From assembly GCA_949710005.1 (NCBI GenBank), contig OX453283.1:23720704-23784703 (forward strand): DNA of 64,000 bases, in the 5' to 3' direction. This document shows, one piece after another, positions 13,685-16,600 of this stretch; the first letter of the stretch is position 1, and the number at the start of each line of letters is the position of its first letter. This DNA comes from Ricordea florida (taxonomy: Eukaryota; Cnidaria; Anthozoa; Corallimorpharia; Ricordeidae). The translations under genes were made by a program, and so were the position numbers. The notes below the pieces were generated by a model. The model did not search any database. It was not told the DNA's origin and was given only the letters and a program-made list of their open reading frames with translations.

Positions 13685-16600
13685 TTATCCAACGGCGCCA
13701 TTTTGTATTCCTTTAACACCGGCAGACAAAGCCTTCGCTTCCTCGTTCACGGTTCTCCCAGTATCTCTGCTGTGCTTTCGCTCCTTCGCCTCGGCCAGTT
13801 TTCGTTCGTTTTCTGCCTTCTTCAACGTTTCAACTTGCTCCTGAAGAAAATGAACCACCCGCTCGCGTTCAAACGACCTGGCGAAATCCAGCGCTGTTTT
13901 GCCGTGTTCTGATTTCAGCTTCACAGAGACCCCTTTCTTGACGAGCAATTTGACAAGAGCTTCAAAGCCGTTTAATGCGGCGTTCATGAGTGTGGTTCTA
14001 CCTTCTTTGTCCATCGTGTGAACGTTGGCACCGTGGTGAATAAGAACCTTTGCAACGTTAATGTTTCCACTAACTGCAGCAACTCTCATTAAAGGCGTCC
14101 AACCTACGAAGAGGAAAAACCTCTTATATTCTGTACTGTGGTACTGTTTGTTTTACTATACAGTGTGCTTCTAACTTTTTCATCTGTGAATCAAACCATG
14201 CAGTGTTACCATTCTTTGTAAAGCTAATGAACAGTACTGTACTGTGGTACTGTTTGTTTTACTATACAGTGTGGTTCTATCTTTTTCATCTGTGAATCAA
14301 ACCATGCAGTGTGACCATTCTTTGTAAAGCTACTGAACAGTACTGTACTGTGGTACTGTTTGTTTTACTATACAGTGTGGCTCTATCTTTTTCATCTGTG
14401 GATCAAACCATGCAGTGTGACCATTCTTTGTAAAGCTAATGAACAGTACTGTACTGTGGTACTGTTTGTTTTCCTATACAGTGTGCTTCTAACTTTTTCA
14501 CTAAAATAGCTACCTGAAGTTTTGTCTTTAACATCAACTTGACAGCCATCTTGTAACATCCATCGTATTACATCCAAGTTAGCTCCATCCACAGCCCAAT
14601 GAAGGGCGGTTGATCCTGTCTTGTCTACCAACTCCCAGCTTCCATTGTGTTGGCGTAGCAACTTTGCAACTTCCAGATTTCCTGTGTAGATTTGGAGTGG
14701 TTACGAATGTTGCGAATTGTCGCGGGTCATTACCCGCATCCGCACCCGTGAACCACCACCTTTAGTTACTACCCGCGACCCACGACCCGCGACCCGCGAC
14801 CCGCGATCCGCAACTTTTGGCAACACTCATCGAGCGATGAAAAATGGTAGGATTGTGGGATGTGGCTTAAAATGAAACAACACTCGTCTACCACTGTCGT
14901 CGCCTCAGTGCGCATATGTGTGGCTTTAACATACCCTCACTACATTTTGACGTTGTCATTTCAAGCCACATCCCACAACCCTACCATTTTTCATCACCGT
15001 GACATTCATAATGTGGGAACCCAGAGCTCTGCTAGCTGTGCCATGCTGATGAGGCCTAACAAGGCCGAAACAGCTGTCCATGGCTGCTGGCTTTTGAGTC
15101 TAATTTTTTCATCTTTTCTAGGATAGCAATAGGGTTTTATCCCTTCTACCACAGTCGCCTCAGTGCGCATATGTGTGGCTTTAACATGCCCTAACTACAT
15201 TTTGACTCATCGAGCAAGACCGACTGTTTCAGCAATGTCCATCACTCTTTCGATTACGGTTAAATTAGGTTATTTAGGGTCTAATAATATACATGCAAAA
15301 ATTTCAGCATGCTCATTGGCTGAGAGCACGTCAATTAATCCCAAACAGTGCAGAAAATTGAAATTGAGTGCAAAAAGTTGAAATTGAGTGCAGAAAGTTG
15401 AAATTAAATTTTTGCATGTAATCACATGATTTGTCTCGTGCAATTTGGGATAAATCAGCACTCGTAAATTTTTCAAAGACTACAGCCTTTGAAAAATTTA
15501 CTCGTGCTGATTTATCCCAAATTGCACTCGACAAATCATGTGATTACCTATACAAACGAGATAGTCAGATATTTGCACTAATATGGTTAATATGGCTGAA
15601 AATTGGCACAGTTCTTTCTTAGCGTATATTTGACCTCAACTACATCTCCGGCAACAAAAATGCCAGACAAGAACTTGGCCCGATTGCAGCCATTTTGACC
15701 AAATAAGCATGGTCAATATAGGATTTATTATAACACCATTTTGTTTTGTTTGGCAGGCCAAAGCAGGAAATCCCGAGCAGGCAAAATAAGCAAATCTTGC
15801 CCCCTTGGGTAGCCAATCAGAACTCAGGATTTGCCTTTATTGCCTGCTCATGATACCAGCCATATAATAAAACAAAATTTCTCAATAACTACAGCAGAGA
15901 AAGTGTACCGCAAAAAAGACAGACAAAAAAGACAATCAACCTGAAAAGCATGCCATCATTAGCGCAGTTTTCCCACTGCTGCTTTGAAAGTTTACATCAG
16001 CACCGTGTTCAAGAAGAACACCAGCAACTTCTGGGTAACCTCTCTGAGCTGCAATTTTAAACATAGATAAAATAATTTTTTTTTCCTATCACAGGAAAAC
16101 TAAGCAGAACCAAAATTAAACATCGATGCTCAAATGTAAGGTATCGACCGAGTAGTGGTCGAGTATTGGCCGCCATATCGATCGACATTCGACCGATACA
16201 CAACCAATACTCGATACGTACAATAAACCATAAAGAATGATTTATCAAACAAGTTGATAAAGCAAGTTATACTTTTTCACTGTAACATTTAAGGTTTGTT
16301 GATATTTCAAGCATCAGTTTTCTGCCAGAGCAAAGAAGGACTAACTCTTGAAACATCAGTACACCTTAACCGTTTAAGCCCCAATATCAATATTCATTTT
16401 CTCCTAACTGTCCTCATATATTTGTTATGGCACTCCTCAGGAGAATTTGTATAAATAGCATTACAGCTCTGTTTTGGTGATCATTTTTGTTATTCTCATA
16501 ACCTGAATGGTTGATGAACTGTGAATATTGTAATGAGAAATTGGATGCTGGTCACTACTGGGACTTAATGGGTTAATTCCTACTATGGTAAAAGTTGCTT

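What the first reader, a model, noticed from the sequence alone, without database searches (positions are those of the whole stretch)
14836..15204. A retrozyme with a textbook hammerhead ribozyme inside a FANK1 intron
All invariant hammerhead bases are present at 15040-15084, with perfect 6-bp stem I and 4-bp stem II and a minimal helix III. The host element has an 11-bp target-site duplication (ACTCATCGAGC), a 255-bp direct-repeat period and a 40-bp inverted 5' end. Animal retrozymes are known as tandem hammerhead repeats that make small circular RNAs. The period predicts a circle of about 255 nt for this family. The clean TSD and legible inversion suggest a fairly young insertion.
Basis: partly seen in the sequence, partly recalled or inferred. 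Interest (0 to 1): 0.85.

Follow-up and report, generated by a model that had tools for sequence, protein, structure and literature searches.

The report
Retrozyme copy with hammerhead ribozyme
A 369-base mobile element carrying an intact-looking self-cutting RNA (hammerhead ribozyme) sits in an intron of an animal gene; it fits a known kind of element that spreads through small RNA circles, and its ends look like a record of how it was copied in.

Summary
A type I hammerhead lies at 15040-15084 (Rfam RF00163 33.9 bits, cut-off 34, E 9.4e-8 in 51 bases; HH9 38 bits, cut-off 52, E 4.8e-6 over the window). It is the only site found by a type I scan; 20 shuffled windows gave none. An outer 6-bp stem extends stem I, and helix III is an 8-nt palindrome, so pairing of two ribozymes is predicted to form the active fold that one alone is not. 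The element is one 255-bp unit plus about 65 bp of a second, an inverted 5' piece, and an exact 11-bp target-site duplication. Most likely: an ordinary animal (non-LTR) retrozyme copy, inserted by target-primed reverse transcription of circular or multimeric RNA with twin priming. Corrections: it lies antisense to the ankyrin-repeat (FANK1-like) gene, so it cannot cut that pre-mRNA; it has one ribozyme, so it cannot release a 255-nt circle by itself; 'young' is weak (4 substitutions in 93 paired positions). Genomic copies, circles and cleavage are untested: the genome search was unanswered 12 of 12 times. A Penelope-like-looking ORF lies 14.5 kb away. New member of a known kind.

The parts
14825..14835 (.). 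left copy of target-site duplication (11 bp; 9-11 given the AC overlap)
   Evidence: identical to 15205-15215; 2 exact matches in window
14836..14888 (-). inverted 5' end, antisense copy of about 14949-14995; 40-bp clean core 14836-14875
14887..14951 (+). partial second unit (about 65 bp), direct repeat of about 15144-15206; overlaps the inverted piece by TC
14952..15206 (+). full 255-bp retrozyme unit
   Evidence: repeat spacing 255; GC 45.9%
15031..15091 (+). hammerhead ribozyme with outer stem I (15031-15036/15086-15091)
   Evidence: HH9 match 15031-15101; pairs listed; fold z -3.7, though the predicted single-molecule fold is not the catalytic one
15040..15084 (+). type I hammerhead core; predicted cut between 15078 and 15079
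   Evidence: RF00163 33.9 bits; only site of the type I scan
15070..15077 (+). palindromic helix III ACAGCUGU, predicted to pair between two ribozymes
   Evidence: co-fold
15205..15215 (.). right copy of target-site duplication
13688..16085 (-). open stretches with ankyrin repeats (13688-14152, 14395-14700, 15939-16085) on either side of the element: the host gene
   Evidence: Pfam Ank/Ank_2; exon borders not modelled
29683..30972 (+). ORF that looks Penelope-like, with a weak C-terminal GIY-YIG match: possible helper type, not shown to act on this element
   Evidence: (20.4 bits, cut-off 22.6)

Best explanation
This is a dispersed copy of an animal non-LTR retrozyme. Source arrays elsewhere are transcribed, cut by their hammerheads into 255-nt units and closed into circles (inferred from published work). 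A reverse transcriptase in trans, most likely from a Penelope-like or LINE-type element, nicked the target, primed on the RNA at an internal point (15206/14952, 128 nt past the ribozyme cut site) and went round 1.25 times, giving one full unit plus about 65 nt of a second. The opposite strand then primed on the same or another such RNA (twin or dual priming), giving the inverted 5' end, and repair left an 11-bp duplication. The intact ribozyme across the cut site and the more-than-one-unit length mean that the template was not a linear, ribozyme-cut monomer; it was a circle or an uncut multimer. The insertion and its anatomy are shown by sequence; template form, priming events, helper and RNA circle are inferred.
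For: Ribozyme covariance match; sole type I scan site in the window with 0 in 20 block-shuffled windows; 255-nt spaced direct repeat; exact 11-bp TSD with differing neighbours; 2-nt overlaps at the 3' end (AC) and at the internal inversion junction (TC); unit GC 46%. Published metazoan retrozymes: 150-450 bp repeats, GC below 50%, type I hammerheads, and, when present, TSDs longer than 4 bp (PMC7229834); 15-bp TSDs in Nematostella (PMC4918200, passages). Twin priming gives inverted pieces inside TSDs in L1 (PMC2837659, passages). An ORF with a weak GIY-YIG match, Penelope-like in my reading, lies in the same window.
Against: No second copy was seen in the window and the host genome could not be searched. 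Only one ribozyme is present in this copy. Rfam scores lie under the gathering cut-offs. The 255-nt unit is not folded better than shuffles (z -1.0, 25 of 200 as good), whereas published retrozyme circles are called highly self-paired. The single ribozyme's minimum-energy fold blocks helix III. Extra stretches of 2 and 4 nt in the inverted piece and 3 nt in the partial unit are unexplained. By eye the left junction shows no microhomology with the unit, while the L1 study found it at both outer junctions and none at the internal one; here it is the 3' and the internal one. Best Pol III B-box likeness has 3 mismatches on the plus strand and 4 on the minus; A boxes 2 and 1.
Confidence: 0.85

Rival explanations
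1. It is a pseudo-LTR fragment of an autonomous Penelope-like element, whose minimal hammerheads resemble this one, rather than an independent retrozyme.
For: Penelope-like elements carry type I hammerheads, tandem copies and internal RT initiation (PMC11167929 and PMC7761336, passages); an ORF that looks Penelope-like is in the window.
Against: The motif has an outer stem I with an internal loop and a 4-nt cap beyond the helix III core pairs, unlike the minimal variants described; near that ORF the element finds only chance-level matches, such as 12 nt at E 2.8; the type I scan found no hammerhead there.
Confidence: 0.08
2. A foldback or MITE-like DNA transposon: 14836-14995 is a 160-bp hairpin with 40-bp arms, and the ribozyme is incidental.
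For: 95% complementary 40-nt arms; the hairpin gives sub-threshold miRNA-precursor matches, as hairpins do.
Against: The TSD flanks 14836-15204, not the hairpin; the 255-nt direct repeat begins inside the hairpin loop; the right arm lies inside the repeat unit next to the ribozyme.
Confidence: 0.03
3. A conserved, functional intronic hammerhead of the HH9 kind acting on the host mRNA.
For: HH9 is the best-scoring hammerhead family when flanks are included (38 bits) and the site is intronic.
Against: It is antisense to the gene, below the HH9 cut-off of 52, and has the marks of an insertion.
Confidence: 0.03

Closest known systems
Metazoan non-LTR retrozymes (Cervera and de la Pena 2020, PMC7229834)
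   Same: type I hammerhead with a weak helix III of two pairs and a 4-nt cap, unit of 255 bp (published RNAs about 170-400 nt), GC under 50%, long TSD, more than one unit in tandem
   Different: only one hammerhead and 1.25 units here; inverted 5' end, which I did not see in the parts read (1-4 of 6)
Hammerhead-bearing Penelope-like elements
   Same: type I hammerhead; tandem or partial tandem structure; internal start of reverse transcription
   Different: no RT ORF in the element; ribozyme has outer stem I and a helix III cap
Plant LTR retrozymes (PMC4918200)
   Same: non-autonomous hammerhead retroelement
   Different: type III hammerhead, 600-800 nt circles, LTRs and 4-bp TSD in plants
HH9 (RF02275)
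   Same: best Rfam match when flanks are included, intronic
   Different: below cut-off, antisense, inside a mobile element

Membership tests
Metazoan non-LTR retrozyme | type I hammerhead with intact core | tested here: met
   under gathering scores by 0.1 bit (RF00163) and 14 bits (HH9)
Metazoan non-LTR retrozyme | tandem repeat unit of about 150-450 bp, GC below 50% | tested here: met
   255-bp spacing, 1.25 units, GC 45.9%
Metazoan non-LTR retrozyme | two or more hammerheads in one element | tested here: not met
   one hammerhead; the partial unit does not include it. I call this a truncated copy; it is not a complete circle-producing element, and membership stays provisional until fuller copies are seen
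Metazoan non-LTR retrozyme | TSD longer than 4 bp, no LTR/PBS/PPT | tested here: inconclusive
   TSD 11 bp met; PBS/PPT motifs not searched
Metazoan non-LTR retrozyme | many dispersed copies in the genome | tested here: inconclusive
   none in the rest of the window; own-genome search unanswered 12 of 12 times
Metazoan non-LTR retrozyme | self-cleavage and circular RNA of unit length | not testable with these tools
   needs RNA data
Penelope-like element | RT plus GIY-YIG ORF within the element | tested here: not met
   the 369-bp element holds no ORF of 150 aa or more; the ORF with a weak GIY-YIG match is 14.5 kb away
HH9 hammerhead | score above the family gathering cut-off | tested here: not met
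   38 of 52 bits

The most novel reading that the evidence does not exclude
The copy is a sequence fossil of target-primed, twin-primed reverse transcription on a circular RNA: RT started at an internal point, ran 1.25 times round a 255-nt circle across the sealed ribozyme site, and the second strand primed on the same circle. If other copies show start points scattered round the unit, insertions alone would show that RNA circles are the transposition template in animals, which has been proposed (PMC7229834) but, in what I read, not shown.
Probability: 0.4. Interest if true: 0.55.

Novelty: new member of a known kind. Interest (0 to 1): 0.32.

Why it matters
Which RNA form animal retrozymes use to insert, and whose enzyme does it, is still inferred (PMC7229834 discussion). 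A copy with a clean TSD, a partial second turn and a 5' inversion ties them to target-primed reverse transcription of a circular or multimeric template, and gives a way to test this from insertion structures alone. As a single locus it is otherwise ordinary.

Tried and rejected
Searching for relatives: exact 24-nt unit pattern in viral contigs and genome contigs: 0 hits each. A short-helix-III type I pattern: 0 in genome contigs, 4 loci in viral contigs. A stem II core pattern in viral contigs: 19 loci. All 23 loci (24 hammerheads) were checked. The element matched 6 of them (L002, L003, L004, L010, L012, L013), each time over 28-31 nt of the ribozyme core only. In 2 of 23 (L005, L016) a 97-nt, 74% direct repeat at 211-nt spacing covers the hammerhead and gives a second one, in viral contigs, so not taken as a retrozyme. 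Several others look like type III hammerheads (my reading, not tested). The collections are prokaryotic or viral, so the misses say little about animal copies.

MITE, Penelope pLTR and functional intronic ribozyme were considered and rejected as given under rivals. No repeat that could be a pseudo-LTR was seen round the Penelope-like ORF. Pol III boxes: nothing convincing. Host taxon: the protein search returned no organism names; a cnidarian is my guess from recall of coral-like tRNA-derived repeats, not a result. FN3 domains expected for FANK1 were not recognised by Pfam in the two stretches tried, so the FANK1 name rests on ankyrin repeats and FN3-like sequence seen by eye.

Full report
Observation. 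The region 14825-15215 was read directly. The 11-mer at 14825-14835 recurs exactly at 15205-15215; of 11 matches in the window at up to 2 mismatches, these 2 are exact, and that total is no more than chance (mean 9.0 in shuffles). Shuffling the two 40-nt flanks gave a shared stretch of 11 nt in 2 of 5000 trials without requiring it to be flush; of 9063 sampled positions with the same spacing none has flush identical 11-mers. Left and right neighbours of the 11-mers differ, so it is not part of a longer repeat. The unit's 3' end reads ...TTTTGAC and the duplication starts with AC, so two bases belong to either.

Repeat anatomy. The 53-nt direct repeat is 96% identical at a spacing of 255 and extends to about 65 nt with a 3-nt indel. 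The 40-nt inverted arms are 95% identical, and the antisense match runs on with extra stretches of 2 and 4 nt to 14888, where it overlaps the direct repeat by TC. Left to right: duplication, inverted piece, about 65 bp of a second unit, one full unit 14952-15206, duplication. The partial unit does not include the ribozyme, so there is one hammerhead.

Ribozyme. RF00163 matches 15040-15084 with no mispair, 33.9 bits against a cut-off of 34 (51 bases searched, E 9.4e-8; 27 bits when one base pair is cut off). HH9 matches 15031-15101 at 38 bits against 52, E 5.3e-8 in 701 bases and 4.8e-6 in the full window. At the gathering cut-offs the window shows three tRNA matches and no hammerhead. A pattern search with three mismatches found this site only, and 0 of 100 shuffles had any. 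A looser type I scan of both strands found this site only, and 0 sites in 20 block-shuffled windows. Stem I (6 bp), stem II (4 bp) and an outer stem (6 bp, one G-U) pair; 15031-15091 folds better than 200 of 200 shuffles, z -3.7. But the predicted single-molecule fold is not the catalytic one: CAGC of helix III pairs with GCUG at the start of the core, helix III has pair probability 0.0, and the native fold with helix III is at -22.3 against -29.7 kcal/mol. Helix III is the palindrome ACAGCUGU; two 49-nt cores co-fold at -43.9 kcal/mol against -20.0 each (so 3.9 better than two misfolded monomers), and that fold has an 8-bp intermolecular helix III, both stems II and both stems I, the double hammerhead. 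This resembles the dimeric action reported for axolotl hammerheads (PMC7229834). Loop-loop contacts were not tested.

Setting. Ankyrin repeats are encoded on the minus strand at 13688-14152, 14395-14700 and 15939-16085, so the element lies in an intron and antisense to the gene. A ribozyme on the plus strand cannot cut that pre-mRNA. FN3 was not recognised in two stretches tried, so FANK1 is likely but not shown. At 29683-30972 an ORF with a weak GIY-YIG match (20.4 bits, cut-off 22.6, no RT family reported) has 220 relatives at E up to 0.001, of which 120 are listed, many with GIY-YIG (PF01541); that it is Penelope-like is my reading.

Mechanism. The element spans the ribozyme cut site without a break and is longer than one unit, so a linear monomer cut by the ribozyme was not the template; a circle or an uncut multimer was. 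Its 3' end lies 128 nt past the cut site. A duplication of 9-11 bp and an antisense piece next to the left duplication are what twin-primed target-primed reverse transcription gives for L1 (PMC2837659, passages). The same study found microhomology at the two outer junctions and none at the internal one; here short overlaps are at the 3' and internal junctions and, by eye, none at the left one, so this detail does not match. Dual priming by two RNAs, also proposed there, would fit as well. Internal RT starts are known for a Penelope-like element (PMC11167929, title and passages). The helper is inferred. If both copies came from one circle, the 4 substitutions in 93 clean positions (2 of 53 and 2 of 40; 3 of 62 and 3 of 49 in the longer gapped alignments) arose after insertion, about 2% per copy. 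That is not very recent, though the numbers are small.

Comparison with print. Read: PMC7229834 parts 1-4 of 6; passages of PMC4918200, PMC7761336, PMC11167929, PMC8490949, PMC2837659, PMC6431247; abstract and outline of PMC4245944. Metazoan retrozymes are described with the same size range, ribozyme type and long duplications. A search for papers holding both 'retrozyme' and 'inversion' gave one, on giant transposons, whose two uses of 'inversion' are not about retrozymes; a search for two of 'retrozyme', 'inversion', 'twin priming' listed 10 of 69, these 10 with zero uses of 'retrozyme'. 'Inverted' was not searched with 'retrozyme'. So an inverted retrozyme end was not found in the held open-access library by these searches; most subscription papers are not in it, and the supplement of PMC7229834 was not read.

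Against. The unit is not unusually structured: z -1.0, 25 of 200 shuffles fold as well. No animal relative was found in collections of prokaryotes and viruses. Genome copies, RNA circles and cleavage are untested. Verdict: a real, truncated copy of what is most likely an animal retrozyme, ordinary in kind, with an informative insertion structure.

Noticed in passing
3242-3676+, 12428-12679-, 14131-14500+, 17257-17917-, 32266-32645-, 40540-41052-, 46256-47215+, 47508-48282+, 56968-57623+: Nine dispersed tandem arrays of one 106-bp unit (2.4 to 9.1 copies, both strands, differing ends), about 8% of the window, without an Rfam match. How such short arrays spread is not explained; a rolling-circle origin is possible.
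   Followed up: partly
9561-9769 and 48939-49357; 23430-24152: Two dispersed arrays of a related 73-bp unit in opposite orientation, and a 62-bp array of 11.7 copies.
   Followed up: no
33319-38253 +: Open 1644-aa retrotransposon ORF with aspartic protease, reverse transcriptase and RNase H domains.
   Followed up: partly
22941-23405 +: ORF matching the TMEM101 family (82 bits).
   Followed up: no
10031-10103 +, 58264-58336 -, 43678-43750 +: tRNA matches; the first two are near-identical and may be tRNA-derived repeats.
   Followed up: no
L005 and L016, hammerhead found and 211 nt upstream of it: Two viral contigs carry two type I-like hammerheads 211 nt apart in a 74% direct repeat, each followed by a possible short ORF start; a third CTGANGA lies 508 nt upstream.
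   Followed up: partly
L020-L023 (2024-2055 - in L020): Four viral contigs carry a hammerhead of identical core sequence, in L020 between two minus-strand ORFs.
   Followed up: partly
about 15420-15545: Large near-perfect palindrome beside the element, seen by eye, with a sub-threshold miRNA-precursor match at 15430-15534; looks like a MITE.
   Followed up: no
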